Shown here: positions 14,501-35,527 of the stretch, piece by piece | Position numbering within the stretch: the first letter of the stretch is position 1 | Layout of the letters: each line of letters opens with the position of its first letter | Source of the DNA: a virus | Virus record (IMG/VR): IMGVR_UViG_3300017963_002993 | Coordinates: 1 to 35,527 of that record | Strand: one strand, 5' to 3' | DNA: 35,527 bases | Program-made: the position numbers and the translations under genes | Notes under the pieces: generated by a model | What the model was told of the DNA's origin: nothing | What the model saw: only the letters and a program-made list of their open reading frames with translations | Database searches by the model: none

Positions 14501-17280
14501 CACATTTGTTGCAGGATATACCAGGCATATGCAGGGTAGAGATAATCGGTCAATGGCACGGGCTCAAAATACTGGCAACCATTCACCAAGTAACATTGAG
14601 CGCCAAAGTTGCTTAACCCTTGTGGCGTGCTTGACTCGTTGCGCTTGGCACAATACCACCTGTAACCCCGACCATCGGGACCCGTATAGCCGTAGACCCC
14701 GCCATAGTCGGGGCGACAATAGACGCATCGCCGTGATTCGAGCCGACATGCTCGGGGGTTGTAGGCCCCGAAGGCAACTTCGTAAAAGTAGTTGATCTCG
14801 AAAGCGGACACGTTGACTCTAAGGTCTTCATATCCCGCGACGCCATTAACTGTCGAGCCCAAGTAGACTGTTGATTCACACGACTCATGGTCTTGATCTC
14901 CTAAATCATGGGTCACAAATAAGCGTCGATTCGTTACAAGCCCCGCGCCCGGAGCGCCAGGGTCCGTGACAGTCAAACTTAGCGTGTTAGAGTCCTGACA
15001 GAGATTCCCCGCGCGGTCAACCATGCCGCCCGCCGGGATCTGTATTGTATAAGCTCCCGTTGCAAGACAAGGCACATCGAACTCAAAAACAACGTCCGTG
15101 CCTATGATGTTCACCGGGTCCACCGCGCCGCCGTTGATGCTGATGGCCGAAGCAATCACACCTGCGACGGGCCTGTCAAACGTCGCCACAACGTGCGCGA
15201 GCGATCCGGTCCAAATTGTAGGGGCGTCCGTCGTCAATGTCGCCGTGGGACCGTCGCCCAAATACTCGACACTCAGCGTATTGCTTGCCGTGTTGAGGAG
15301 CACACCCGGCCACGTTCCATCAATGCCGACATCCCAGCCCACGGGCGCGCCCGGCCCAGGTCCCAGATATGCGTGATAGCACAGGTCCGCCGGCAACTGG
15401 CATGTAATCATTCCCGAGGTTGCGCCCCCGATCAGGCTTGGCGTGAGGTCGAACGTGTAATGATCGGACGCCACTTGCACCCAGTTGCTCAGGGTAGCGT
15501 TTACAATGTAGAGTTCCGAGGATAACAACCCGCCCACGCCGCCATTGTGAAACTTTAGCACGCACGGAATCGGCCCGCTGTTCACTGTGCTCGCCCCGGT
15601 CGTATATAAGACCGGGTCCGGTTGGTACCAACGATTCAAACCATTGTCAAGGTATGACGCGCCCGTGGTCCAATTGTGAGCAAGCGTGTTCGATACCGCG
15701 TTGTCATTGCCAGCTTCGTCCTTGCAGACAGTCGCCGCGACTTGCACGGACGGACTAGCGCCTTTGACCACGAGCACAAACGTATATTTTGATCCGTCGC
15801 CCCCGAAAGCCTCAATCTCAGCATCCGCATTCGGCGTGATGTCTGCCTCGCTGAAACCATATACCGGCTTCGGCGTAGTCCCGTCCGCTTCGAAAAACTC
15901 CACCATAACATCAATGGCTTTGTTGGTCGTATTCGTCGCTTCACTTGAGGTCAGATCGCAATCCGGAGCGTCGGTGTTGTACTCCAATTTAATCCGCGTT
16001 GCATGCGTCGGCTGCCCGCCCGTCTCATTCGCCGCCCCATAGGGCAATTCAATCGTGACATCTTGCGGGCTTGTGCTAGGATTGTTGACCGTGAAGTGGA
16101 GCCGGTAGTGGTCATCCGCTCCACCAACGCGCGTGAGTGATGTTTTGGTGATATTGGTCACACTGAAATCCGACATCCCCAGGCCGGTCACATCCTCCTT
16201 GAATTGTATGTCGATTGTGTTAGGCGTTGTGTTGAACGTGATCCGCTGCGCGCCTGCCGATGAAAATACCATGCAACAACGCCGCGGCTCAGCGGTCTCA
16301 CTGGAACAGTCCACATCCACCCAATTACCATTGATCAGAGCCCGTACCCAGAAAGACTTTTGGCCGGCGTCATTGACGAAATAGTGAGAGACGGCGCAAT
16401 CGTCGCCGTTGTCATCCTTGAGGCGGAACGCGCCGCTAGACCATTGCGCCGACCGCGAGTCATACACAACTGACTTGCGGACGCCATAGAAAAATGATGG
16501 ATACTCAATAGGATACCAGTCTTGCGGGAAGTTGTATTCCCGGCCAATCCAAATTTGCCGTGTTACTGGGTTCGAATCGCGCGACGTATTGAAGGCGTCT
16601 CCGACATCCTTATCAAGGGTTAGGGTTAGAGTAGATGGGCGAGCAGGAGAAAGCCCCTCTTGGATACCAGAGATCGCCACAATGTGACTGTGCATACCCA
16701 ACGCACAGTTATTACCCAAAAGTGCCACGTAATCCTGAACCTGTATCGGCGTTGCACCGTGGATATAGCCGCGCGGGTCATGGCCTTGGCCAACTGCCGT
16801 ATTGATTACAATTTGGTTTCCGGTTGCGGAGATGACGGTATAGTAAGTGCCATCCTGGAAGTTCGGCTTTTTTGTTCCGTCCCATCCCATGCCACCGTAG
16901 AGCGTGGATTGAAACGCCCCGTTGAAAATGACTGACCACCATCCGTTGGTCCACTTTTCCAATGACCACAAGAATAGCTGCATCATCAGTAATTGATGGT
17001 CGAGATCTTTCGCGCTCTGCGATGCGGTGAACGGATTCGCGCCGACATACTTCCCGCCCTTTGTGTTCGCTAGCGCCCATCCCTTTTTCGATTCGTGATT
17101 GGTGGTTTGCGCCAAGTGACAGTCCTGGCAGTTGGTTATAGGACACCAAACAATCGAGCCGCCCGACATGCTCGGGGCGCAATACGGGAACCCCGAGATA
17201 TATGGGGCAGCTGCCCAGTATCCACCAGGGGCGTCCGAATGCACAAAATGATCAAGCTCGTGTCCCATGTTAGCAGGCAT
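11533..17280 (-). CDS. Giant tail/host-recognition protein (1915 aa)
   Basis: The largest gene in the window, lying where lambda-like phages encode the central tip or fibre protein. The N-terminal 350 residues are rich in Trp, Gly and Cys; the region about 360-560 and again about 640-780 shows immunoglobulin-like beta-sandwich sequence (ATVCKDEAGNDNAVSNTLAH; IPAGGMVDRAGNLCQDSNTL), as in bacterial Big/CBM-like adhesion domains. A cysteine-rich patch follows (CRLESRRCVYCRPDYGG), and the C-terminal thousand residues are aromatic-rich without a domain I recognise. There is no lambda gpJ-like hub sequence. Starts at 17280 and 17268 are both possible and neither has a good ribosome site; translation may be coupled, since the gene overlaps the previous stop. 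Confidence 0.75.
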   Translation of the reverse strand: MPANMGHELDHFVHSDAPGGYWAAAPYISGFPYCAPSMSGGSIVWCPITNCQDCHLAQTTNHESKKGWALANTKGGKYVGANPFTASQSAKDLDHQLLMMQLFLWSLEKWTNGWWSVIFNGAFQSTLYGGMGWDGTKKPNFQDGTYYTVISATGNQIVINTAVGQGHDPRGYIHGATPIQVQDYVALLGNNCALGMHSHIVAISGIQEGLSPARPSTLTLTLDKDVGDAFNTSRDSNPVTRQIWIGREYNFPQDWYPIEYPSFFYGVRKSVVYDSRSAQWSSGAFRLKDDNGDDCAVSHYFVNDAGQKSFWVRALINGNWVDVDCSSETAEPRRCCMVFSSAGAQRITFNTTPNTIDIQFKEDVTGLGMSDFSVTNITKTSLTRVGGADDHYRLHFTVNNPSTSPQDVTIELPYGAANETGGQPTHATRIKLEYNTDAPDCDLTSSEATNTTNKAIDVMVEFFEADGTTPKPVYGFSEADITPNADAEIEAFGGDGSKYTFVLVVKGASPSVQVAATVCKDEAGNDNAVSNTLAHNWTTGASYLDNGLNRWYQPDPVLYTTGASTVNSGPIPCVLKFHNGGVGGLLSSELYIVNATLSNWVQVASDHYTFDLTPSLIGGATSGMITCQLPADLCYHAYLGPGPGAPVGWDVGIDGTWPGVLLNTASNTLSVEYLGDGPTATLTTDAPTIWTGSLAHVVATFDRPVAGVIASAISINGGAVDPVNIIGTDVVFEFDVPCLATGAYTIQIPAGGMVDRAGNLCQDSNTLSLTVTDPGAPGAGLVTNRRLFVTHDLGDQDHESCESTVYLGSTVNGVAGYEDLRVNVSAFEINYFYEVAFGAYNPRACRLESRRCVYCRPDYGGVYGYTGPDGRGYRWYCAKRNESSTPQGLSNFGAQCYLVNGCQYFEPVPLTDYLYPAYAWYILQQMWIGIPGAFAQIFAGDNSIRNWKWQRVGHPSITGFLTPALELAYTPQYTPQFQPQGCGNFGFWDVVEEEFHQGVAHDLTETPTWTTPNTGTPSYGTLPAKLAWEGWCAGRKNQRDNAVLDNDSDPYGEWRSWPFINCWGASRDGSQPITGDLALARYCRLNQGNDTSEQILIPAIAASDGELQVRTHGAVEYNTWRQDLTRTTPADPLAYYGAMVRILPHPHRTDNLVAWSTGYVRSFTPITGGYRIECYLGVHWGQYFWVDPAYGPTIVVSNWYGGYNVVGAPEWARNRNPLGYENATLVNAQGPAKGAREGYVMAFLHPTNPVWLTTWPIGGDPGQEVPAWIITKANGCAGAQLSWQDNGPHKGAADDTFYDDHIAPCGSRPYNEKNWGSKADVLEVADPSGTLAALIAAGTVVAGSRFAVANGTQTFGPEQGDPNFFWTRKYVDNWQAISSADIDEIDFTLGLYAVKLATAQALFAEDEICFRVDAPQGRLSQAAFVSARDINDTLRAMTAIDTTTSEVYTSGDIVTVQAIRYQMLSYFSAPSTRMDWTDSLPDPPQQLVADAIAAKGRTTSIAALYSGNLYTWAAAGLSTDPLGKPWVWNDPDDQRLPPGPGGECPTFPFYGGIEFGPLGATFGYAKWGTWFPYYWYFLGEGYVIDPWYDANDDWFVGNGEIYSWYANFALAAANGFALELNVDVATPVTVDLDNTAVIIYGATYDVSYKASASAIRFPLLDRLPDGVTIAAAYMDVLVTIGTWERYVAWEYYAEFPMGEIKHWNEFHTTDPEPWDHKFRWKYNTQYDGFYTPAVGACPDAENFVLESGDTIGDVYGAAGTYDLVSNPAIPSVKLALVGVKPNGDFDWLGVSLTVRAYYTGDPAATRQSCDVTNIANAYMTYRKRGYLHFALVVISPLATSNAGLNQVIEPISTTPCNSYPWQDNQKVFPLLCKIPHFYLTNPDVTVYDPMTVQFTATSATPMAGAGPLGNLPHFK

Positions 17281-24955: not shown

Positions 24956-25255
24956 TCACGCGTCCGCCCCTTCCTCATCATCGGCTCGCGTGGCGTCCGG
25001 GTGTTCCGCCAAATAGGCGTTGAACACCTGGTCCAACGCGCCAACCTGGAGCGGAGGGACGCCCTCATCGCCCTTGATAATACGGGCCATGCTCAATATG
25101 GGCACGGTGTCCTCGGGCTCGATTGTCCCGCGTGTCACCAACTCACATTGTTTGCGATACATTTCCCGCACGCAGTCAACCGCAAGTTGGCGCATAGCCT
25201 TTTCGACTTCCCGCGCTCGTGCATGCAATTGTGTTCCCGTTGAAAACTGACCCAT
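24956..25255 (-). CDS. Candidate tail assembly chaperone (99 aa)
   Basis: AAAGGGCGAG lies ahead of the ATG at 25255. The product is helical (ARAREVEKAMRQLAVDCVRE) with an acidic tail (RADDEEGADA). Placement between tail tube and tape measure, size and helical character fit a gpG-like assembly chaperone, but no diagnostic motif is seen. Confidence 0.6.
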   Translation of the reverse strand: MGQFSTGTQLHARAREVEKAMRQLAVDCVREMYRKQCELVTRGTIEPEDTVPILSMARIIKGDEGVPPLQVGALDQVFNAYLAEHPDATRADDEEGADA

Positions 25256-25269
25256 GGTCTCGCCCTTTC

Positions 25270-26223
25270 TTATGCGATAGCGGTAGCCGCTGACACAACC
25301 ATAATCGCGTTTGTTCCATCGTACGTCGGAGTTATGATGACTTCCGCCATAAGCGGTTCGCCTTGGGAGCCACCTACTGTCTGGCAGGAAATCCGTCCAT
25401 CATCTATTGTGAATGAGATGTGCTCCGATGTTGCGTCGGCAACGCGTGTTCCACCCTCGTCAACTTTGCGGAGATACACCACGCTGTCCGACGCGCCTTG
25501 CTCCGCGCCTGCCGCCGTCAGCGTGCTGAGAATGCCTACGTTGCTGGACCGCACACGAATTGACGGATTGCGATTCATGATTCCCACAAACGTGGGATAC
25601 GCCTCGCCGTCACCTTGACGGACAATTTCCTCGATGCCAAAATCAACTGTGATATCCTCAATACCCGTGATCGCCGAGCCGTTGATTTTCACGGGACCGC
25701 AAACAAACGCCTCTGTCACATCGGGCGATCCCGTCAATTGCTGGCTGCCGGTAATCGTCAACGGCGACGTGCTGCCGTCGCTGGAGATGGCCGAAATTTC
25801 GAGGTCATACGTTGCAAATGCGTTCAGCGGCGCATTGATTGTACGCGGAATGATAAGCCCATTTCCGATGCTGAGCTTCGTATGCTCGGCGGTTGTCGGC
25901 GGTGTGCGTGTGCCGCCGCTGAGCATCTTTTGCAACCATGCCTCAACGGCGTTGAGACCGCTTGACCCGCTCGCTTCAATCAACAGGCCCGAAATGCCTA
26001 CCTTGCCAAGCACTGTTGCAAGCGCCGTTGTGCTTACACGCAGTCGCGGCTCTTGGCTCATGACAGCAACATATTTCGGGTCAACGCAACCATCCGCCGC
26101 CGCCAGCTCCTCACTCAGGTTTGTGTCAAGTGCCCAGTCCACAAGTTGGGAAATGAGGTAATCCTCCCCGGAGTTGGGGTCGGCGTTTAGCGCATATAGG
26201 GTGTGAAGTGTTGATACTGCCAT
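25270..26223 (-). CDS. Major tail tube protein (317 aa)
   Basis: The sequence is beta-rich and soluble with many Thr/Ser/Gly, e.g. LVDWALDTNLSEELAAADG, SIGNGLIIPRTINAPLNAF and GIEDITVDFGIEEIVRQGDG. It lies just upstream of the tail assembly genes and the tape measure, where the tube subunit is encoded, and is the right size for a tube protein with an added domain. The start overlaps the upstream stop as TAATG. Confidence 0.7.
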   Translation of the reverse strand: MAVSTLHTLYALNADPNSGEDYLISQLVDWALDTNLSEELAAADGCVDPKYVAVMSQEPRLRVSTTALATVLGKVGISGLLIEASGSSGLNAVEAWLQKMLSGGTRTPPTTAEHTKLSIGNGLIIPRTINAPLNAFATYDLEISAISSDGSTSPLTITGSQQLTGSPDVTEAFVCGPVKINGSAITGIEDITVDFGIEEIVRQGDGEAYPTFVGIMNRNPSIRVRSSNVGILSTLTAAGAEQGASDSVVYLRKVDEGGTRVADATSEHISFTIDDGRISCQTVGGSQGEPLMAEVIITPTYDGTNAIMVVSAATAIA

Positions 26224-26696
26224 TAGACCGTTGTCCTTTCCGCATTGCGCAAATTCATGATGCGGACTTGCATCAAGTCTTCGTAGAAGTCCTGCATTTC
26301 TTTTTGCTCCGCTTGCGTCGTGCGCGTAAGCTCGGCGGCCTTATCCGCTTGCCCGGTCGCCTTGCGATAAGCATATAGATGTTTTGGCCCAGTCAATATT
26401 CCTCGCGCGCGCTTTGATGTGCCGCTCAATCGCACCCCGCTTGTTACCATGCGCTTCATCTCGCCCGACCAGACAAGCGGCAACTGGTGGCCCATTACAC
26501 GTTGCTTGCGCCGGAGATAAGCATCCGTCCGTTTCTGATACCGATATTTCCATGCCGCAATTGGCTTAAAATGCTGTGGTAAAAACATCTGCCACCAAAA
26601 CCGCACGGTGTCTCTTAGTGAGTTGCGATTCAGCGGCGCAAACCGCCGAGCAACTTGTCGCGGACTTCCTCTTTCTATGATCTGTCCTCGTATCAT
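26223..26696 (-). CDS. Basic tail-completion protein candidate (157 aa)
   Basis: The start at 26696 overlaps the upstream stop as ATGA and has GGAG at a good distance. The sequence is very basic with repeated aromatic residues (FWWQMFLPQHFKPIAAWKYR; TDAYLRRKQRVMGHQLPLVW). In lambda-like and HK97-like phages a protein of this kind (gpZ/gp10 type) joins head and tail. Assignment rests on position and charge. Confidence 0.55.
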   Translation of the reverse strand: MIRGQIIERGSPRQVARRFAPLNRNSLRDTVRFWWQMFLPQHFKPIAAWKYRYQKRTDAYLRRKQRVMGHQLPLVWSGEMKRMVTSGVRLSGTSKRARGILTGPKHLYAYRKATGQADKAAELTRTTQAEQKEMQDFYEDLMQVRIMNLRNAERTTV

Positions 26697-27193
26697 GGCC
26701 CCCACTCCACGTTGAACGACATCCAGTGAAAATGGTCGCCTTCGCCGGACCGGTTCGGGAAGTTGCGCTCGGGCGGGTCGCGTTGCATAATCCGCTGAAT
26801 GGAGAGGTAGCCGCCAGATCCGGCCAACTCGCTCATGTCGTCAATCACGCCGCCGACGTTGTTCAGGAATTCCAAGGCGGCATCGTCAACCGCGGCTTCC
26901 GCCTGATACGCCACTGAGACGCCGGCCTCGAACATCAGGACTAGGGAGCCACCTTCTTGAAAGTGATTGCGCGCCCCGCCCGCAATCATGTTGTATGACC
27001 AACTGTCGCCTTGCGTGATTACCGCGAAGGGCCGGGTCAAACTACTGGCGGAAACATAGGCCATATAGGTGCGCGCCCGCGCCGCCGCGACCGTGCTCAC
27101 GCCAAGCCACATTTGCCACGCGCTACAATTCGCGAGAAGCGTTTGCAGATTGTAGATCGGCAAACTTAACGGCCCTGTCGGCGTCACTGCCAT
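26693..27193 (-). CDS. Tail terminator-like protein (166 aa)
   Basis: The gene starts three bases after the preceding stop. The N-terminus is helical (LPIYNLQTLLANCSAWQMWL), the middle strand-rich (RPFAVITQGDSWSYNMIAGG; GSLVLMFEAGVSVAYQAEAA) and the end is FHWMSFNVEWGP; this helix-then-sheet order with a final strand resembles gpU-type terminators that cap the tail tube. No diagnostic motif is present. Confidence 0.55.
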   Translation of the reverse strand: MAVTPTGPLSLPIYNLQTLLANCSAWQMWLGVSTVAAARARTYMAYVSASSLTRPFAVITQGDSWSYNMIAGGARNHFQEGGSLVLMFEAGVSVAYQAEAAVDDAALEFLNNVGGVIDDMSELAGSGGYLSIQRIMQRDPPERNFPNRSGEGDHFHWMSFNVEWGP

Positions 27194-27196
27194 TGA

Positions 27197-27574
27197 TCAA
27201 CCTCGATGGTTCACAAACATGTCTTGGCGGCCTTTGAACTCGGCGTCGAACTTCTGCACTTGTAAAAGCGCCAAGCCTTCGTTGTCGTCGGCCTCGACTT
27301 CCACGACTGACCAGTCCGCCGCGTCGAATGTTACAACGTCCTTGCGTGCCGGGGTGGCGATGCCTTCCGTGGCATCCGTTGAAACCATTACATCAGCCTG
27401 AGTAAGTTCGCCGACGCCTTCCGCGCAGACGTTTTCGCGCTGGGGTTGGCGATCAACAATCGCGGTGATGGATTTCAACGCGCCGCCATCGGGCGTATAA
27501 CTCACCGTCTCGCCAAGCCCATCCAGCAACATGGCGCGCCCCGATTCCTCAAAAGCGTCGGCAAACCAACTCAT
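27197..27574 (-). CDS. Head-tail connector candidate, gpFII-like (125 aa)
   Basis: The protein starts MSWFADAFEESGRAMLLDGL, a short helix as in lambda FII-type attachment proteins, and then alternates strands (VSYTPDGG, ITAIVDRQP, KDVVTFDAADWSVVEVEADD, ALLQVQKFDAEF). Size and place after the capsid genes fit the protein that joins the finished head to the tail. The previous gene stops directly at its start. Confidence 0.65.
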   Translation of the reverse strand: MSWFADAFEESGRAMLLDGLGETVSYTPDGGALKSITAIVDRQPQRENVCAEGVGELTQADVMVSTDATEGIATPARKDVVTFDAADWSVVEVEADDNEGLALLQVQKFDAEFKGRQDMFVNHRG

Positions 27575-28345
27575 TTAGTCCTGCCAGACTTGCACGCGCA
27601 GCGTGGTTGTCATAGTTGTGGGCCCGTCTAGGTAGACAGTCACGGCATCGGTGCTGGGCACAATGCTTGTTATGCTCCGGCCTTGCCCCGATGTAACAAT
27701 CGAAGCGAACGGGTAATCGTCGGAATCCGTGCCGCTCACGGTAATTGCCACGCTCGATGTATTGGTTGTCACGTCATCCGTGGCGAACACGAGCGTTTTT
27801 CCCGAGGCGATAAGCGTGGTCGCGGTGCAGGTCGTGAACGTGCCGGCCGCTGGCGTTGTGTCGCCAATTGTGGCCCCGTCAATGTTCCCTCCATCAATAT
27901 CAGCAAGCACAGCGCCCAAAGACGTAAAATCGCCAGCGGCGGGCGTTGTGCCCCCGATGGTAACACTATCCGCTGTGCCACCGTTGATATCCGCTGTGGT
28001 TGCGGTGAGGGAGCTAAACGTGCCAGCAGCAGCGGACGAACCACCAATGGTTGTTCCGTCAATGGCCCCGCCATCCAGATTTACCGTTGTTCCCGTTAGC
28101 GTGGTAAACGTGCCGGCCGCTGGGGTCGTTCCACCAATCACGGTTCCGTCAATCGTGCCGCCGTCAATGTCCACGGTTGCAAGCGTCGAGCCCGATGGCA
28201 ACGTCGCGCTATCGTTTACCGTAAGACTGGAAACGCGCAAATTCACGAACGACCCGTTCTGGGTTTCGTAGTACGCGCCCAAACAGATCGCGACACCAAG
28301 AGCCAACCACGCAAGCGGCAACAGGTTTCGGCCTTTGTATTTCAT
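27575..28345 (-). CDS. Membrane-anchored protein of GTTPAAGTFT repeats (256 aa)
   Basis: The start at 28345 has AAAGGAC nine bases upstream. Residues about 8-25 (LLPLAWLALGVAICLGAYYE) form a transmembrane or uncleaved signal segment. Residues 50-190 hold four to five tandem repeats of about 30 residues of the form IDGTTIGGTTPAAGTFTTLT, a beta-solenoid-like repeat seen in many phage proteins, and the C-terminus is a small strand-rich domain. It lies between the major capsid and connector genes where lambda has FI. A membrane segment is odd for a head protein, so it may be a surface fibre. Confidence 0.75.
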   Translation of the reverse strand: MKYKGRNLLPLAWLALGVAICLGAYYETQNGSFVNLRVSSLTVNDSATLPSGSTLATVDIDGGTIDGTVIGGTTPAAGTFTTLTGTTVNLDGGAIDGTTIGGSSAAAGTFSSLTATTADINGGTADSVTIGGTTPAAGDFTSLGAVLADIDGGNIDGATIGDTTPAAGTFTTCTATTLIASGKTLVFATDDVTTNTSSVAITVSGTDSDDYPFASIVTSGQGRSITSIVPSTDAVTVYLDGPTTMTTTLRVQVWQD

Positions 28346-28381
28346 CGTTTCAAAGTCCTTTCCGGGGCATTGCCCCATGGC

Positions 28382-29341
28382 TTACGTGGTGATGTTGTCA
28401 AGCAACTGCAAGCACTCGGTGAACAGGATTTTTTCGTCCGTGTCCATGCGCGCGCGGATGATGTCCGACCGAACCGTTTCGTCGCGGTAGCTTTCCATCG
28501 TTGCGCCGATAGACGAACCATCTTGTCCCCAATGGAACATGCGCCCGAGTCCCGGCTCTCGAATGTCATTTGACGTGCAGATCCGGGCAACCGCCGCGTA
28601 TTCATCCGACCAAATCGGGGAAATGCTCACGCTCTGCTCGCTGTTTGCCGTGTTCTTCGCGCTTCCCGCAACGATGATGTATGGTAGGTCGAAAGCATCC
28701 TGGAGCTCCGCAATCCCGATTTCCGCAGGCAGCACTGACTTTACAGCTTTCACTTTGTCAATGATTTCCGAGCACCGTCGCACGTTGAGAAACACTCGGC
28801 GGTTGACGATGAGCGCATTGGCCCAAAGACCGGTTGCGTCCCATAGCGCCTTGACCCTGGCGGCAACGTCCGTAATCGGCGTTGCGGCGGTCACGTCATC
28901 CCATTCATTCGTAACACTGGTCGGCGTCCATGTTGACGCGTTGAACACCATGTCCGCCACGCGCTTTTCCATATTGCGCAACACAACATCGCGGGCACGT
29001 TGCGCGGAGACCAGCTCTGCGTCGAAGAAGTCTACGTAGAGGTCGGCTTCCCGATCATCCACGGGCTCCTCGGCGCCATGCTCCTCGGTCGCGTAGCTGT
29101 CGGTTGTGAAGTCCCAGTGCGACCGAGCGTAACCCGTGCCGGGCGCACGTCGCGTTTCGCGGTTCTCCAGCAATTGTTCGATGGGGATTTTCCCAAAGAT
29201 TCCGCTCGACTTGGCAACCTCGATGACCGGCAACACCTGGGGTGCAATAAAGCCCGCGCGGTCGGCGGCCAAATCGAACTCTTCCAAACTCCCGGCCAAC
29301 TCGGGCCGCAGAGTCGAGAGGCTTGATGTTGGGTGAGGCAT
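28382..29341 (-). CDS. Major capsid protein (319 aa)
   Basis: The ATG at 29341 follows AAAGGAG by eight bases; the GTG at 29350 is too close to that site. The sequence fits the lambda gpE-like HK97-fold capsid group: an N-arm, then a strand-helix region with RRAPGTGYARSHWDFTTDSY, a long spine-like helix region (FDAELVSAQRARDVVLRNME) and a P-domain with LWANALIVNRRVFLNVRRC. It lies directly after a decoration protein and protease-scaffold gene, the usual lambda order. No cleaved delta domain is apparent at its N-terminus. Confidence 0.8.
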   Translation of the reverse strand: MPHPTSSLSTLRPELAGSLEEFDLAADRAGFIAPQVLPVIEVAKSSGIFGKIPIEQLLENRETRRAPGTGYARSHWDFTTDSYATEEHGAEEPVDDREADLYVDFFDAELVSAQRARDVVLRNMEKRVADMVFNASTWTPTSVTNEWDDVTAATPITDVAARVKALWDATGLWANALIVNRRVFLNVRRCSEIIDKVKAVKSVLPAEIGIAELQDAFDLPYIIVAGSAKNTANSEQSVSISPIWSDEYAAVARICTSNDIREPGLGRMFHWGQDGSSIGATMESYRDETVRSDIIRARMDTDEKILFTECLQLLDNITT

Positions 29342-29427
29342 CGGTTTCACTCCTTTAGTGAGTTTCGCCGATCCTCGCTTTCGCCTTTGTTACCTCCGTG
29401 AAGTTTGATCCGCTTTCCGCTATCCGC

Positions 29428-29781
29428 TTACGCAGGCAATACTTCAATTGCATCATTGTTCGCTGTGGCGGCTTCCAGCGCTTCGCCAACGGCAACCGTC
29501 CCGCTGTCGGAAATCTTGCCACTTGCCGCTGCATACACCGCCGCGCCCTTGGCAATCGCTTTCGACGCGATCATGATCTGCGTGCCTTGCGCCGTTGTGA
29601 GGCGCACGGCGACTTCTTCGTCGGCGGCCAACGCGTCAGTCTCTAGCGTGCCGACACAATCCGTATGCGCGGCGCTGCAATATTCGAGCTGTCCACTTCC
29701 ATCCAAATGGACACGCCGATATTGGCTCAATGCGCCGCTTGCTGTGAATGTGCGGGTTGGAGTTGCTACAAAATTCGCCAT
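29428..29781 (-). CDS. Head decoration-like protein, DUF2190-type (117 aa)
   Basis: AAAGGGG lies upstream of the ATG. The small beta protein runs RTFTASGALSQYRRVHLDGS, CVGTLETDALAADEEVAVRL and AIAKGAAVYAAASGKISDSG, a pattern of DUF2190/decoration proteins that sit on capsid surfaces. It is placed between protease and capsid genes, where lambda encodes gpD. The 77 bases between its stop and the capsid start contain a ribosome site for the capsid gene and no other gene. Confidence 0.75.
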   Translation of the reverse strand: MANFVATPTRTFTASGALSQYRRVHLDGSGQLEYCSAAHTDCVGTLETDALAADEEVAVRLTTAQGTQIMIASKAIAKGAAVYAAASGKISDSGTVAVGEALEAATANNDAIEVLPA

Positions 29782-29841
29782 TTTTCTTACCCCTTTCTTT
29801 GTCGTTGTCGGTTCGGGCTTTGCTTGGCCTTGTTCGTTTTG

Positions 29842-30303
29842 TTAGATCTCGCGTTCCGCGAATGCCAGCGCTCCTTTCCGGTTTCCTTGGCGCTCATTAT
29901 AAGCGACCACGTACGCCTTGTGAAGTTCCGGGTCCGCTTTTCGCGCGGCCTTGATGGCATCGGCGTGTCTCTTGCCCTTGGCCAAGTGCGCCCCAATAGC
30001 CGATTCCCAACGATCAATCGCATCGGCGTTGGTCGCCTCTTCCTCATCGCCACCTTCAGACCCCAGCGCGTCAACCCCCGGCTTGGAGGCCTTCGCCTTG
30101 AGCTCCTCGATCTCCTTGGCCTGATGCGCCATCCATGCCCCCTTGGCTTCGTCCGCCGTAGCCTTGCGTTCGAGCTGATCACACAAGAAGTCGGCGGTCG
30201 CCTGTGGGACGGCGGCCTTCAGTTCTTGGTAGGTCGCCGCCACGGGCTCTTGTGACGGTGTTTCCGCAACAATAGCGGTGTCCGCCGTTGTTTCTGTCGC
30301 CAT
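29842..30303 (-). CDS. Nested in-frame scaffold protein candidate (153 aa)
   Basis: Within the protease frame an ATG at 30303 is preceded by a perfect AAAGGAG and ten bases of spacing, giving a product that begins MATETTADTAIVAETPSQEP and is helical and acidic in its first half. Lambda makes its scaffold Nu3 from an internal start in gene C in the same way. The internal ribosome site is seen; its use is inferred by analogy. Confidence 0.6.
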   Translation of the reverse strand: MATETTADTAIVAETPSQEPVAATYQELKAAVPQATADFLCDQLERKATADEAKGAWMAHQAKEIEELKAKASKPGVDALGSEGGDEEEATNADAIDRWESAIGAHLAKGKRHADAIKAARKADPELHKAYVVAYNERQGNRKGALAFAEREI

Positions 30304-31179
30304 TTTTGTCTTGCTCCTTTCTCTGTTTGTTTCCTCTCGCAAATCTTCGAGGACCAATTCAAACGGCTTTATGCCGTCGATCAACCCTACTTTGATTGCG
30401 TCCGCGCCCACGTAAACCCGACCATCCGCCAAGGCTTGCACGACCTGAATGCCCATGCGTCGGCCCCGCGCGACGGCCTCATTGAACTGATTGCCCAACT
30501 TGTCCACCGTCGCCTGAAATTCCGTCAAATGCTCCTCGGTGACTTCCGTCCCCGGCGTGCCCGCTCCCTTGAATTCGCCGGTCCGCAAAACGTGGACCTT
30601 GATTCCCTCGCTCTCGGCAAACGCGGAAGAATCCTCCACAACCAGAAAAACACCGATGCTGCCGATCAATGCGTTTGCGTTTGCGAAAACCTTGTTGGCC
30701 TGCGATGCGACATAGTAGGCCGCGCTTGCGCCCCGGTCCTCAATGTAGGCGTAGACTGGCTTTTCTTTGGACGCTCGCGCCACGTCGTCGGCGAGATCGG
30801 GAATGCCCGATACCGTCCCGCCAGGCGAATCAATTACAAGCGCAATACCAGCGATGGAATCATCAACAAGCGCATTGCGCACTTGCCGCCGGGCCCGGAC
30901 GGTTGAGGCAGCCTCCATCAAGCTAGAGCCATATTTCATGAGCGTACCGCTCAGTTGAATCATGGCGATTCCGCCAGTAAGCACGGGGTAGCTTATGTCA
31001 GTCGCCACTTGGGGCTCGGCAAGTTGCTTGGCGATATGGTCGCCTAAATCGCGCGCTCGAACCGTTGTTGCAAGGGCCTGGAACGTCGCGGACTCCATCG
31101 CCCACGGACCGAAATACTGATCAAGGTGCGAAACGCGCTCGGTGGCCCACCCCGGCGGCTGGATGTCAAACTCAAGCAT
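29842..31179 (-). CDS. S49 (SppA-like) capsid maturation protease (445 aa)
   Basis: Motifs of the SppA/S49 family are present: DSPGGTVSG (about 117-125), the nucleophile Ser152 in RGASAAYYVAS, GSIGV (173-177) and the general-base Lys204 in EFKGAGTPG. As in lambda gpC the protease domain is followed by a helical acidic C-terminal part (from about residue 290) that can act as scaffold. The start at 31179 overlaps the portal stop by eight bases and has GGGAG ahead; the earlier ATG at 31197 has a site too close to it. It would cut scaffold and itself during prohead maturation. Confidence 0.85.
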   Translation of the reverse strand: MLEFDIQPPGWATERVSHLDQYFGPWAMESATFQALATTVRARDLGDHIAKQLAEPQVATDISYPVLTGGIAMIQLSGTLMKYGSSLMEAASTVRARRQVRNALVDDSIAGIALVIDSPGGTVSGIPDLADDVARASKEKPVYAYIEDRGASAAYYVASQANKVFANANALIGSIGVFLVVEDSSAFAESEGIKVHVLRTGEFKGAGTPGTEVTEEHLTEFQATVDKLGNQFNEAVARGRRMGIQVVQALADGRVYVGADAIKVGLIDGIKPFELVLEDLREETNRERSKTKMATETTADTAIVAETPSQEPVAATYQELKAAVPQATADFLCDQLERKATADEAKGAWMAHQAKEIEELKAKASKPGVDALGSEGGDEEEATNADAIDRWESAIGAHLAKGKRHADAIKAARKADPELHKAYVVAYNERQGNRKGALAFAEREI

Positions 31180-32734
31180 CGTCGCTCCCATCGTCATCCT
31201 CTTTCATGGGTTTTGCAGGTTGTGCCTTTTGCTGAGGCAGAGCCGCCAGATCGCGCCATGTTACCCCGGCGTTCACGCTCTGCCCGTTGATTTCATCGGC
31301 CTTGGCAATTGCCAAGGAAATTATGATTGCGCGGTCCTCGACGATCTCGGCAGCAACATCGTCCCAGTCCTGGCCTCGTTCCGCATGTAAGCGGCGAGGC
31401 GAGATAAGACCGTTCTCCAACCGATGACTATCGGCCTGGGCGTCCTTCAATGGCTCGATATATGGCCACGTCGGCGGGTTCCAGTTGTGGGCAAAAACAT
31501 CAATGCCGGACCGCATGGCAGCCCGCCGAATTGCGGAATCATCCGCATGCCATTGGCGCAGCTTCCAGACATACGTCGGGCGATATAGGCGCTCAATCAA
31601 CCGCTGCTGCATCTCGCGAAAGCCTATGCGGGCTTGATCTACGGCGCCACGCCAGCCAGAGAAATTCGTCTCGCTTGCGTCCAATGTTACCAGCACCAAT
31701 GGAAGCCCGAGGTTGTTTCCGATAGTTGTCAAGATTTGCTTGATATGTGGGAAATATTCGGGATTGGGAACGCTCGGAGAAAAGCCCTGGAGTTTTTCTC
31801 CCGGCGCTCCGGTGACTTCCATTCCTGGCGCCACGCCCTCGACTGTGCGAGTCGTCGAATCGCTCAAGGTCTCAGTGGCGGTGTCGCCCATGGTAGGGGG
31901 CGTGCCTCCCGAGAAATCAATCTCCCGCTCACGGAAAAACGCGAAGCAGCTCACAACTTGCTGTTGCACAAGCTTCGCAAATTCAATGTCCTCCAACATA
32001 CCCATCTTATCAAACACCGGGGCAAACGCCGTCACGCCGCGGGTTTGCGAAATCCGCCTCGGATTGTAAACGTGAAAGACCTGGCGATAGCCCTTGTTGT
32101 CGCGGACCGGGTAGGGGCGCATGTCACTGACAAGCCGCACGGTTTTACTCGGCGCAACGTCCTCTTTGGTGAACCAATACTCAAGGCGCCTACGGTATTT
32201 GTTCAGCAACACCCCATGCACAACCGGCCTGCTCGTGTTTGTTGGCGTCCGCAAGCGGTGGGCCTCGACAGCTTCCAAGGCCCCCTCCTCGCGATCAGGC
32301 AGAAAACACACGTCGCCATCCACAAACATCTGGCGCAACGCAAGCCGGACTTGAGAATTGAAATTGTGCTCTCCTGCGCGGTCGCATTGTTCCGGGTCTA
32401 TCGCCCATGCCTTCCAGTGAGCCAGCAAATCCGCATCCAAGCCAGGATCGCCAGTCGCCGGATCTAGCTTGATTCCACCTTGCAAAATGTTCGTCACGGC
32501 TCGGTTGACAATGTAGCCTACATTGGCGTCGTTGCGGTCGAAGTCGCGCGCATATTCCATCATGCGCAGATAGTCCGAATCGTTGCGATAGTGATAGTCG
32601 GCATGCGCCCCCGATGACGGAATGCCTGAGCGTATACGACGAAAGCGATTGGACCGCGCCGCAGCATAATCCGCCCGCATACCCTCATAGGCGTCGAAAA
32701 CGGAGGTAGGCTCTTGGCGTCGTCTGCGTCTCAT
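31172..32734 (-). CDS. Portal protein, lambda gpB family (520 aa)
   Basis: The sequence follows the lambda-type portal pattern: a basic N-terminus, DSDYLRMMEYARDFDRNDAN, ALRQMFVDGDVCFLPDREEG, the crown/stem portion with YRQVFHVYNPRRISQTRGVT and an internal helix FAKLVQQQVVSCFAFF, then NNLGLPLVLVTLDASETNFS and GWRGAVDQARIGFREMQQRL. Length matches the family (about 530 aa). It forms the twelve-fold ring through which DNA enters. The start overlaps the gpW-like stop as ATGA. Confidence 0.9.
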   Translation of the reverse strand: MRRRRRQEPTSVFDAYEGMRADYAAARSNRFRRIRSGIPSSGAHADYHYRNDSDYLRMMEYARDFDRNDANVGYIVNRAVTNILQGGIKLDPATGDPGLDADLLAHWKAWAIDPEQCDRAGEHNFNSQVRLALRQMFVDGDVCFLPDREEGALEAVEAHRLRTPTNTSRPVVHGVLLNKYRRRLEYWFTKEDVAPSKTVRLVSDMRPYPVRDNKGYRQVFHVYNPRRISQTRGVTAFAPVFDKMGMLEDIEFAKLVQQQVVSCFAFFREREIDFSGGTPPTMGDTATETLSDSTTRTVEGVAPGMEVTGAPGEKLQGFSPSVPNPEYFPHIKQILTTIGNNLGLPLVLVTLDASETNFSGWRGAVDQARIGFREMQQRLIERLYRPTYVWKLRQWHADDSAIRRAAMRSGIDVFAHNWNPPTWPYIEPLKDAQADSHRLENGLISPRRLHAERGQDWDDVAAEIVEDRAIIISLAIAKADEINGQSVNAGVTWRDLAALPQQKAQPAKPMKEDDDGSDDA

Positions 32735-33121: not shown

Positions 33122-33131
33122 GGGTTCCGAG

Positions 33132-33172
33132 TTCGGTTTTTCGGATTGTTCGGAATTTCGGTTTTTCGGATT
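33132..33172 (-). repeat. Direct repeats upstream of the late promoter
   Basis: TTCGGTTTTTCGGATT occurs exactly at 33132-33147 and 33157-33172 (period 25), with additional TTCGGA and TTCCGA boxes between and beside them. They sit 11-51 bases upstream of the -35 element, where an activator or UP-like element would bind. The rest of 33019-33200 holds no gene. Confidence 0.65.
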
Positions 33173-33200
33173 TTTACCCACACACTTCCTGAGTCACTGC

Positions 33201-33635
33201 CTACTCCGGCGGAGCTGGGATCTTGGTCCAATAAGCCACGGGCGGCGTAGACAACATGCACAATCGCGCACTGTTCAGATACCAATCCTCCCCCGCGAAA
33301 TAGGCCATCATCGGACCACCGTCTATGGATTGGCCACGCAACCAGACGAGATAATATCCCTTCTTCTCAGGAAGCTCCGTGTTACAATCCATCCATTCAA
33401 TGAATTTGTGTACAGGAGCTGACACACGCACTTCCTCATAGCGGCCGATATAGCATGCTCGCCCACGGCAATCTGGGCGAAGCACAATAAGGCCTCCACT
33501 ACGAAATCGGATTGCAACATGGCTTTCCATGTCGATCCTCTGAAGACGTTCGCCCTGTTCGTTCTCGAATTGGCCTAAGACAGCGCCCTCGAATTCGTGC
33601 AAATTCTGGTTGCCGCACAACTGCCAAGTTCTCAT
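33201..33635 (-). CDS. DUF551-containing small protein (144 aa)
   Basis: The start overlaps the preceding stop as ATGA. The C-terminal half (from about residue 80) has the order IEWMDCNTELPEKKGYYLVW, AYFAGEDWYL and VAYWTKIPAPPE, as in the DUF551 family, whose members end in a WMPLPxPP-like motif and are frequent in phages with no known function. The first half (RLQRIDMESHVAIRFRSGGL) is a separate beta-rich segment. It is probably transcribed with the Cas12f-like gene. Confidence 0.7.
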   Translation of the reverse strand: MRTWQLCGNQNLHEFEGAVLGQFENEQGERLQRIDMESHVAIRFRSGGLIVLRPDCRGRACYIGRYEEVRVSAPVHKFIEWMDCNTELPEKKGYYLVWLRGQSIDGGPMMAYFAGEDWYLNSARLCMLSTPPVAYWTKIPAPPE

Positions 33636-33940
33636 GATCTCTCTCCTGTCGGTATTTGTTCACACAACCAACGAATTACGTCAGGTGGCGTGTTGACGAA
33701 TCGCTTATTGTTGAGTCGCGCCCCTTGCCGCTGAAGCCCCATCCACAAACGTTTAAACGCCTTTGCTTGATTCATGCTCAACATCACCTCCACGTGACGC
33801 TGTGCATACTGACCCTCAACCAAGTCTTCCAGAGGCAATTCCAGCCGAGTCATGTTTTGGCGTGTCGCCCCGGTTTCCGGCGCAACGGTCAACATCCCGT
33901 TGCTTTGCTGTTGTTGCTGTCTCGAACGGTGTTTACTCAT
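33632..33940 (-). CDS. Small basic protein downstream of the nuclease (102 aa)
   Basis: AAAGGAC is placed about seven bases before the ATG at 33940, 27 bases after the nuclease stop. The N-terminus is Gln-rich (RQQQQQSNG) and basic; the rest is helical (HVEVMLSMNQAKAFKRLWMG; PPDVIRWLCEQIP). No family is recognised. It is coupled to the DUF551 gene by ATGA, so the three genes appear to form one unit. Confidence 0.65.
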   Translation of the reverse strand: MSKHRSRQQQQQSNGMLTVAPETGATRQNMTRLELPLEDLVEGQYAQRHVEVMLSMNQAKAFKRLWMGLQRQGARLNNKRFVNTPPDVIRWLCEQIPTGERS

Positions 33941-33967
33941 GCGTCAGTCCTTTCTGGCAATATACGT

Positions 33968-35332
33968 TTACGCCATTGCCTTATTTGCTCTTTCCGCTAT
34001 CTGTTTGTCAATGCCGAGCATTGACAAGTTACGCGCCGCGTTTTTGTCCGCATGGTCTTTGTGCTCGCAAACAACACACTTGAACGCAGCTGATCCGGCT
34101 TTGCCTTTTGGACGATTTCGCCGATCTATGCAACCACATTTTGCGCATCTCTGCGATGTATAACGCGGATCTACATAGACAATTTGCGCGCCTATTTGTT
34201 TCGCTTGCCATTCAATCGCGGTCTTCAATGTATATGGCGCCCAATGCCGCGCCAACCATTTATCATTTTTGATATTCGCGGAAAGGTCTTCCATTTGCCA
34301 AATACCCGCGCCTTCGCGTTTCGCAATGTCCGCGATTGTTCCAGCAATCCCGCGTGACGCATTGTTGATTAACCGTCGCTCTTTGCTCCGTAACTTTCTC
34401 AAACGCGCTTGCACATTGTCGCGCATTGGACCCATGAGTCCGCTATGCTTGCTTTTCAATGCGCGGACTATGCGCCGGATTTCGTTCTTTATCAGGCCTC
34501 TGGAATTCAAAATCTCGCGCCCCCGGCCTATCAACATTGCCCATGCGCGAGGCTTGCCCTTTTCCCGGATATGTATTGCGGCTGGCACCATAACGCCAAA
34601 ATCTATACCCAGAACCACGTCCTCGGATAACGCGCAATCGCGTTGAGGATATGCAATCACAACACCAGCCTTCCATTTTGCTTCATGCGCTCGCCGACTC
34701 GTATTTCGATATACTTTACAGTCGCGAAGTTCCCAGTCCTTTTTTTCGGGGTCCTGAGAAATCACGTTTTCGATTTGTTGTAGTTGTGTTTTGTCTCGGC
34801 GTTTCACGCGCAACCCATAGGCAACCCACGTTGACAGTCCGTTTTCCTTTGCCCACTTTTGCGCAAACATTTGGACGCACAACCAATATTGATTTGCATC
34901 CTTGACTACCCGCGTACAAGTCGCGCGAATAGGCAACGGCAACGTTCCATCCGTGCGAAATGTAGCTAGGCTTCTTGTGCCCTTCAGTAATAACGCTTTC
35001 CCGGGCTCGCCAGTAAACTGCGTTTCCGCGTTCCGACATATGCCGTTCGCCATTTGTGCGCACATTGGGCCATTCGCAATATCCAACTCCTCGAATATGT
35101 CCTTGTAACCATTTAGGCGCAGGCGCTTACGCTCGTTTGGTGGCAATTTTTTTTTCTTGCACAAATAGGTATTGAAGGAATGTTGATTCGCTATATCACC
35201 AGCGGTTCTCGCCATTTGTCGCATTGTGTCATATATGAGCTTTCTTTGTTCTTCCGTGATGTCTTCCACGGTATCCGTGCGGGGATAGTACTCCTTGATT
35301 TGGCCTACTCCAAATGTTAGTGTTTTGATCAT
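33968..35332 (-). CDS. Cas12f-like / TnpB-superfamily RNA-guided nuclease (454 aa)
   Basis: The ATG at 35332 follows AGGAGAAAG; the frame is open further, into the tandem repeat, and that extension is rejected. The C-terminal half carries the complete RuvC and zinc set: Asp244 in LGIDFGV, Glu348 in WQMEDLS, Cys396/Cys399 and Cys419/Cys422 in a four-cysteine ribbon, and Asp429 in HADKNAARNL. The stretches VDPRYTSQRCAKCG and IDRRNRP and the end GIDKQIAERANK closely follow AsCas12f1 as I remember it, and the LPLPIR element before the RuvC half also has a Cas12f counterpart. AsCas12f1 is 422 aa, so the length fits. It should cleave DNA guided by RNA; no tnpA lies beside it. Family membership is firm; whether it is Cas12f or a TnpB relative is not settled. 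Confidence 0.9.
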   Translation of the reverse strand: MIKTLTFGVGQIKEYYPRTDTVEDITEEQRKLIYDTMRQMARTAGDIANQHSFNTYLCKKKKLPPNERKRLRLNGYKDIFEELDIANGPMCAQMANGICRNAETQFTGEPGKALLLKGTRSLATFRTDGTLPLPIRATCTRVVKDANQYWLCVQMFAQKWAKENGLSTWVAYGLRVKRRDKTQLQQIENVISQDPEKKDWELRDCKVYRNTSRRAHEAKWKAGVVIAYPQRDCALSEDVVLGIDFGVMVPAAIHIREKGKPRAWAMLIGRGREILNSRGLIKNEIRRIVRALKSKHSGLMGPMRDNVQARLRKLRSKERRLINNASRGIAGTIADIAKREGAGIWQMEDLSANIKNDKWLARHWAPYTLKTAIEWQAKQIGAQIVYVDPRYTSQRCAKCGCIDRRNRPKGKAGSAAFKCVVCEHKDHADKNAARNLSMLGIDKQIAERANKAMA

Positions 35333-35405
35333 AATTCTTCTTTCTCCTGCTTCTTGCGCGTGGGTTGCGACCGCCGGATGGCGCGGCAAGGACGGTTGAA
35401 TCCCT

Positions 35406-35527
35406 CCTCCACCTCGCGCGTGGCCCGGACCTTGCGCGAGTGGCCGGACCCGGTCCTCCACCTCGCGCGTGGCCCGGACCTTGCGCGAGTGGCCGGACCC
35501 GGTCCTCCACCTCGCGCGTGGCCCGGA
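35406..35527. repeat. 49-bp perfect tandem repeats with internal hairpin, running off the window
   Basis: Two full copies (35406-35454, 35455-35503) and the first 24 bases of a third are identical. Each unit holds CTCGCGC and GCGCGAG as a seven-pair inverted repeat with a 14-base loop, and GGACC-C-GGTCC spans each unit junction. The two halves of the unit resemble each other, suggesting growth from a unit of about 24 bp. No variable spacers are visible. It lies 73 bases before the Cas12f-like start. The copy number cannot be known, as the array reaches the edge. Confidence 0.85.

What the first reader, a model, noticed from the sequence alone, without database searches (positions are those of the whole stretch)
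35406..35527. Structured 49-bp tandem array next to the Cas12f-like gene
The repeats are perfect, each has an internal CTCGCGC/GCGCGAG stem, and a diverged copy (GCGCGTGG-containing, 35352-35372) lies nearer the gene, as seen for end repeats of CRISPR arrays. But there are no spacers between units. It may be a proto-array, a repeated guide-RNA scaffold, a protein-binding or origin-like array, or an assembly artefact at a contig end.
Basis: partly seen in the sequence, partly recalled or inferred. Interest (0 to 1): 0.75.

Follow-up and report, generated by a model that had tools for sequence, protein, structure and literature searches.

The report
Collapsed phage CRISPR array beside Cas12f
The repeats are real and appear to be the end of a phage-borne CRISPR guide array next to its small DNA-cutting enzyme Cas12f, but these repeat units have almost no room for guides; this is a new variant of a known kind of system.

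Summary
Confirmed: the last 123 bases (35405-35527) are a perfect 49-bp tandem repeat. The contig probably ends there because 123 is a top k-mer used in JGI MEGAHIT assemblies; a control contig named k87 ends in a periodic tail of exactly 87. Copy number is unknown, probably at least 3.5.

The gene (33968-35332, minus) is not a stray TnpB. It falls in a fully supported Cas12f (type V-F) clade; 4 of its 5 closest relatives carry CRISPR arrays and all 5 a tracrRNA-like element. The 49-bp unit ends, in gene sense, like a V-F repeat. The gap between them is 34 nt, the spacer length of these systems. The joint signal was matched by 0 of 5000 shuffles. Truncated terminal repeats before cas12f also occur in related loci.

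So this is the gene-proximal end of a phage V-F array: one normal spacer, then repeat units whose 'spacer' shrank to about 10-17 nt and which multiplied in tandem. No target and no tracrRNA were found.

The parts
35405..35527 (-). Perfect 49-bp tandem array (2.5 units, cut by the contig end). In gene sense each unit ends in GCGCGAGGTGGAGG, like the 3' end of clade V-F repeats; the repeat-like stretch of the unit nearest the gene is about 35406-35444, leaving about 10 nt (17 if the repeat is taken as 32 nt) as residual spacer
   Evidence: period; 3' half score; alignment to the L096 repeat with an internal gap, 0 of 2000 shuffles as good
35372..35405 (-). 34-nt spacer-length gap, the only normal-length spacer visible; no target found
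   Evidence: spacing; arrays of relatives with period 65-68, repeat 32; target searches
35356..35371 (-).
   Evidence: best of 71,024 sites for V-F repeat 5'-half matrices; same arrangement in L009, L031, L115, L131
35344..35348 (-). AGGAG, probable ribosome-binding site, 11 nt before the start codon
   Evidence: read from sequence
33968..35332 (-). cas12f (454 aa), RuvC residues D244, E348, D429 and four zinc-ribbon cysteines in conserved columns; probably nuclease-competent
33941..33967 (-). 27-nt gap after cas12f: no room for the tracrRNA and array that follow the gene in close relatives
   Evidence: R1 model not found
33632..33940 (-). Small phage gene (102 aa) that directly follows terL in related phages, so the CRISPR locus is cargo inserted between terL and this gene

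Best explanation
The feature is the gene-proximal end of a type V-F CRISPR locus carried as cargo by a tailed phage between its large terminase gene and a small conserved gene. In gene sense the order is: tandem 49-bp units, a 34-nt spacer, a repeat truncated to its 5' half, ribosome-binding site, cas12f. Shown by comparison: the gene belongs to the Cas12f family, and the truncated terminal repeat and the repeat-like 3' end of the unit lie exactly one V-F spacer apart. Inferred: the 49-bp units are CRISPR repeats whose spacer shrank to about 10-17 nt and then amplified in tandem by slippage or recombination, in a phage with no Cas1 in the held sequence to renew the array. Inferred: the transcript runs toward cas12f, and only the last unit plus the 34-nt spacer could give a normal guide RNA; the other units would give guide-poor hairpins. 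A tracrRNA is expected upstream, beyond the contig end.
For: Protein: PADLOC Cas12u3 7e-57 and Cas12f 2e-52; PDB Cas12f1 entries; SH-aLRT 100 clade of 6 with L015 and L095-L098, separated from the TnpB rows. Of the 5 closest relatives, 4 have CRISPR arrays and 5 have the tracrRNA-like element (R1, 93-116 bits; these are the sequences the model was built from). Repeat 5'-half matrix: top of 71,024 sites is 35356-35371 with both a 17-repeat and a 4-repeat matrix. Joint 5'-half plus 3'-half at 33-35 nt: 0 of 5000 shuffles with either matrix, and best site of the window, 23.9 against 13.3 for the next site away from this locus (17-repeat matrix). Control: over 2.0 Mb counting both strands in 164 loci, non-recurring hits at or above the window's score number 6, all gene-sense and downstream of cas12f hits; the best non-recurring antisense hit scores 18.4. 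Unit against the L096 repeat: 0 of 2000 shuffles. Arrays upstream of cas12f occur in 7 of 51 array-bearing loci left after removing duplicates; of those 7, printed (L009, L024, L031, L115, L131) end in a truncated repeat before the gene.
Against: The units themselves have no spacer of normal length, so a defining CRISPR feature is not met by the array proper. No tracrRNA was found in held sequence. The spacer matched nothing convincing. The 32-nt full-repeat matrix ranks the site 1st with the 4-repeat set but only 4th with the 17-repeat set. The matrices were built after I had noticed the site, and the half-repeat split was my choice. The unit is palindromic, so the antisense reading also scores above chance (p(max) 0.0125). 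The 5' border of the repeat inside the unit is not fixed. No sigma-70 promoter match was found.
Confidence: 0.78

Rival explanations
1. A plain minisatellite: 49-bp slippage repeats of no function that happen to lie upstream of a transposon-derived TnpB gene; resemblance to CRISPR repeats is accidental.
For: Perfect identity of units and lack of spacers fit slippage; one unit alone folds no better than shuffles; early gap-penalised alignments of the unit to clade repeats gave only p 0.014-0.028.
Against: Joint signal with the truncated repeat at exact spacer distance, 0 of 5000; unit against L096, 0 of 2000; protein nests among CRISPR-bearing Cas12f.
Confidence: 0.12
2. The units are a working device: repeated guide-free crRNA-like hairpins that bind Cas12f (own or the host's) as decoys or regulators, comparable to phage RNA anti-CRISPRs.
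For: Units keep a long repeat-like stem and the V-F 3' end while the guide is lost and copies stayed identical; Racrs are known phage repeat mimics (PMC10651486, passages seen, including three V-A Racrs).
Against: No expression or binding data; the published SRUs are described as solitary and often not associated with cas genes; recent slippage also explains identical copies; seen in only one contig.
Confidence: 0.1
3. IS200/IS605-type TnpB element whose left end carries the repeats, with an omega-RNA at its 3' end.
For: Pfam, PHROGs and NCBIfam annotate the protein in TnpB/OrfB or transposase terms.
Against: NCBIfam guided_TnpB scores 95.1, under its cut-off of 100; the tree puts it with Cas12f and away from the TnpB rows; only 27 nt separate its stop from the next phage gene.
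Confidence: 0.05
4. Assembly artefact: the tandem repeat does not exist.
For: It lies at a contig end.
Against: The tail length equals the top k of a JGI MEGAHIT recipe (123), as expected when a real tandem array longer than k closes a loop in the graph; contig k87_5115811 (L095) shows the same with exactly 87; the array connects coherently to spacer, truncated repeat and gene. The assembler of this contig is not stated to me, so this is inference.
Confidence: 0.03

Closest known systems
Type V-F CRISPR-Cas12f loci of L015 (virus contig), L096, L097, L098
   Same: Effector 41-44% identical over nearly full length; repeat family; spacer length 33-36
   Different: Their array and tracrRNA-like element lie downstream of the gene and have ordinary spacers; the window has 27 nt downstream and a spacer-poor array upstream
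Alicyclobacillus phage MMB025 Cas12f locus (PV686781.1, L009) and virus contigs L017, L024, L026, L031
   Same: Virus-borne Cas12f with the array directly upstream; in L009 and L031 the last repeat is cut short before the gene
   Different: Distant proteins (about 26-31% identity over part of the length); normal spacers
Racr / solitary repeat units (PMC10651486)
   Same: Phage-encoded CRISPR-repeat-like units without guides
   Different: [quoted passage not shown] here tandem and beside the phage's own cas12f
Viral type V effectors with CRISPR arrays in landfill viromes (PMC12607003)
   Same: Cas12f/V-U/TnpB-like genes near arrays on viral contigs
   Different: No spacer-collapsed array in the passages I saw

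Membership tests
Type V-F CRISPR-Cas (Cas12f) | Cas12f effector with RuvC triad and zinc ribbon | tested here: met
Type V-F CRISPR-Cas (Cas12f) | Effector nests among CRISPR-associated Cas12f rather than TnpB | tested here: met
   SH-aLRT 100 for the clade of 6; quick tree, TnpB rows are few and long-branched
Type V-F CRISPR-Cas (Cas12f) | Direct repeats of the V-F family next to the effector | tested here: met
   only half-repeats match well without gaps
Type V-F CRISPR-Cas (Cas12f) | Repeats separated by unique spacers of normal length | tested here: inconclusive
   One 34-nt spacer (35372-35405); the 49-bp units have about 10-17 nt, identical; the array is cut by the contig end
Type V-F CRISPR-Cas (Cas12f) | tracrRNA | tested here: inconclusive
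   Absent from the held sequence (best 5.9 bits against 93-116 in relatives); upstream DNA is not held
Type V-F CRISPR-Cas (Cas12f) | Processed crRNAs that guide cleavage | not testable with these tools
   needs RNA and biochemistry
IS200/IS605 TnpB element | TnpB-type guided nuclease by curated cut-off | tested here: not met
   NF040570 95.1 bits, cut-off 100
IS200/IS605 TnpB element | Adjacent TnpA and transposon ends | not tested
   no family search for TnpA was run; upstream DNA not held
Racr / solitary repeat unit | Single repeat not associated with cas genes | tested here: not met
   tandem array directly upstream of cas12f; definition
Racr / solitary repeat unit | RNA that sequesters Cas proteins | not testable with these tools
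   needs RNA pull-down

The most novel reading that the evidence does not exclude
A phage has turned a V-F CRISPR array into a tandem bank of guide-free repeat RNAs that load onto Cas12f, its own or the host's, as a decoy or switch: a multi-copy RNA anti-CRISPR or self-regulator built into a cas12f locus, with one remaining normal guide.
Probability: 0.1. Interest if true: 0.85.

Novelty: new variant of a known kind. Interest (0 to 1): 0.56.

Why it matters
It places an anonymous phage repeat inside a rare Cas12f clade (1 of 392, 1 of 387 and 1 of 40 genomes in three phyla sampled, each being the seed genome itself). It shows that phage V-F arrays can sit in front of the gene and suggests that they can lose their spacers while repeat copies multiply. 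If the guide-free units are expressed, they offer a direct test of whether CRISPR-derived repeats can work without guides. A practical point: a contig tail whose perfect period length equals the assembler's k marks an unresolved real array, not an error.

Tried and rejected
Exact 19-mer of the unit in IMG/VR: 2 contigs (L002, L003), a single copy each in near-identical DNA with no tandem array there; taken as chance. Blast of the array against phages: only weak partial matches. Rfam: nothing but a weak mir-750 match below its cut-off. Single-protein scans for the nuclease in viral and genome contigs found nothing; the family alignment was needed. A tracrRNA model was not found in the window. 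Spacer target: exact 18-mer in IMG/VR 0 hits; phages best E 0.4; plasmids best E 0.9; best ungapped match of the first 20 nt in the window and 7 held loci, 6 mismatches. L095's 24-bp tandem repeats near its cas12f were considered as a parallel and set aside: by eye they lie among REP-like palindromes and a RAYT-like gene (names recalled). The first test of similarity of the unit to clade repeats was only suggestive. Cas1 is not in the window. No structure prediction was run.

Choices that affect counts: the 17-repeat matrix uses 17 of the consensus repeats listed (a 32-nt class picked by hand; repeats of the GTTTAAT, GTTTCTG and other types were left out). One search left out 15 duplicate or overlapping loci and scanned 164; that is not a complete removal of duplicates (L022, for example, stayed). 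One search left out 14 loci by name and any reversed hits and examined 159 including the window. The tree used 76 of 139 other candidate proteins; its array labels were partly assigned by hand. Not in print: full-text searches showed no spacer-collapsed V-F array in their listings; subscription papers are mostly not held.

Full report
OBSERVATION. The last 123 bases of the window (35405-35527) repeat perfectly with period 49. They are 77% GC against 56% for the contig, and no 13-mer of them recurs at window 1-35300. The window is a whole IMG/VR virus record.

WHY THE CONTIG ENDS THERE. A de Bruijn assembler cannot leave a tandem array once the periodic stretch is k long (established knowledge, recalled). 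MEGAHIT with k-list 23,43,63,83,103,123 is reported in JGI-related papers (passages seen: PMC6243002, PMC6646334). The window's tail is exactly 123. As a control, L095 lies on a contig whose title names k87, and its perfect periodic tail is exactly 87. So the array is probably real, at least about k+49 = 172 nt long, with unknown copy number. The assembler of this very contig was not shown to me, so this step is inference.

THE GENE. The 454-aa protein at 33968-35332 (minus) matches Cas12f1-like Pfam, Cas12u3 and Cas12f of PADLOC over almost its full length, and Cas12f1 structures. RuvC residues and zinc-ribbon cysteines are in conserved columns (their roles are recalled). NCBIfam's TnpB model scores just under its cut-off. 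An alignment search found five relatives at 41-44% identity: L015 on a virus contig, and L095-L098 in Sumerlaeota, an unplaced bacterium, Kiritimatiellae and Sedimentisphaerales. In a quick maximum-likelihood tree of 77 rows the window and these five form a clade with SH-aLRT 100, with the CRISPR-bearing Cas12f rows and apart from the TnpB rows. Four of the five have CRISPR arrays about 350 nt downstream, and all five have a conserved structured element between gene and array position, taken as tracrRNA.

PHAGE CONTEXT. Portal-related phages L004-L007 have terL followed within 3-26 nt by the homologue of the window's 102-aa gene. In the window cas12f and the array sit directly upstream of that gene, so they are read as inserted cargo; terL itself lies beyond the contig edge. 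The array and the nuclease were found in 0 of 5 related phage records; one of these, the near-identical phage L008, stops at window 31275 in the held stretch.

THE ARRAY IS V-F CRISPR. Matrices made from V-F repeats were scanned over both strands of the window. For the 5' 16 nt, the best of 71,024 sites with both the 17-repeat and the 4-repeat matrix is 35356-35371, minus strand, GTCGCAACCCACGCGC, 23 nt before the cas12f start. For the 3' 12 nt, the unit's gene-sense GCGAGGTGGAGG scores among the best (8th and 3rd place) and p is 0.001 against unit shuffles. The distance between the two is 34 nt, and clade spacers are 33-36. The joint score is reached by 0 of 5000 shuffles with either matrix, and the next site in the window outside this locus scores 13.3 (17-repeat matrix) or 15.4 (4-repeat matrix) against 23.9 or 25.4. 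In 164 other loci the 6 non-recurring hits at or above that score are all gene-sense and downstream of cas12f hits; I take them as array members, since three (L103, L114, L118) lie in or beside arrays seen and three (L106, L112, L150) lie about 270-330 nt after the matched stretch. The best non-recurring antisense hit scores 18.4. With a long internal gap allowed, the unit aligns in gene sense to the L096 repeat better than all of 2000 shuffles. Against this: ungapped whole-repeat scores are weaker, the earlier alignment test gave only p 0.01-0.03, the antisense reading of the palindromic unit is also above chance, and I had noticed the site before building the matrices.

SAME ARCHITECTURE ELSEWHERE. 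In L009 (Alicyclobacillus phage MMB025), L031, L115 and L131 the array lies directly upstream of cas12f and its last repeat keeps only its 5' part before the start codon; L024 loses less, and L017 and L026 keep a full last repeat. Among 51 array-bearing loci left after removing duplicates, 7 have the array upstream: 5 of 12 viral and 2 of 39 genomic or plasmid (Fisher p 0.005, kin not corrected for). Of 159 loci examined, only the window and L095 have short-period repeats near the gene.

HOW IT PROBABLY WORKS. Inference throughout: transcription from beyond the contig edge would run through the array toward cas12f. The last unit and the 34-nt spacer could yield one standard guide. The units further away carry about 10-17 nt between repeat-like parts and cannot carry a normal guide. 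The simplest history is spacer loss and tandem amplification in an array that this phage cannot renew itself (no Cas1 in the window). Whether the guide-poor units do anything is open. No target for the 34-nt spacer was found, and the tracrRNA, absent here, should lie upstream, as tracr-like stretches seem to do in L009 (read by eye).

NOVELTY. Phage-borne V-F-like effectors with arrays are known (PMC12607003, passages and section 11). Guide-free repeat RNAs of phages are known as Racrs (PMC10651486, passages). A V-F array collapsed to 49-bp near-spacerless units in front of its own cas12f did not appear in my searches. I file it as a new variant of a known kind.

Noticed in passing
L095 2798-2890, 4397-4513, 5295-5391: Sumerlaeota relative keeps the tracrRNA-like element but shows no CRISPR array; 24-bp tandem repeats lie just upstream of cas12f and at the contig end next to a RAYT-like gene.
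   Followed up: partly
L017 and L102: Nearly identical Cas12f proteins (branch lengths 0.014 and 0.017), yet the array is upstream in the virus contig and downstream in Aneurinibacillus.
   Followed up: no
L009 1427-1539 and 1731-1917: MMB025 phage carries two different small repeat arrays upstream of its Cas12f-like gene, each apparently preceded by a tracr-like stretch; only one is annotated as CRISPR.
   Followed up: partly
window 25175-31275 / L008: The same phage, 100% identical over 6101 bases, was assembled as IMGVR_UViG_3300028840_002428, but that contig stops before the array.
   Followed up: partly
window 33131-33174: Short tandem repeat (TTCGGATT) between two small genes near the portal gene.
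   Followed up: no
window 27831-28175: Internal direct repeats within the 267-aa ORF 27575-28378 next to the major head protein gene.
   Followed up: no
L005 3219-5582: Related phage has a DNA methylase-like gene inserted in the same terL-portal interval and coding 21-bp repeats in its enlarged copy of the 102-aa gene: this interval seems to be a cargo site.
   Followed up: no
window 11533-17280: 1915-aa ORF with a bacterial Ig-like domain match.
   Followed up: no
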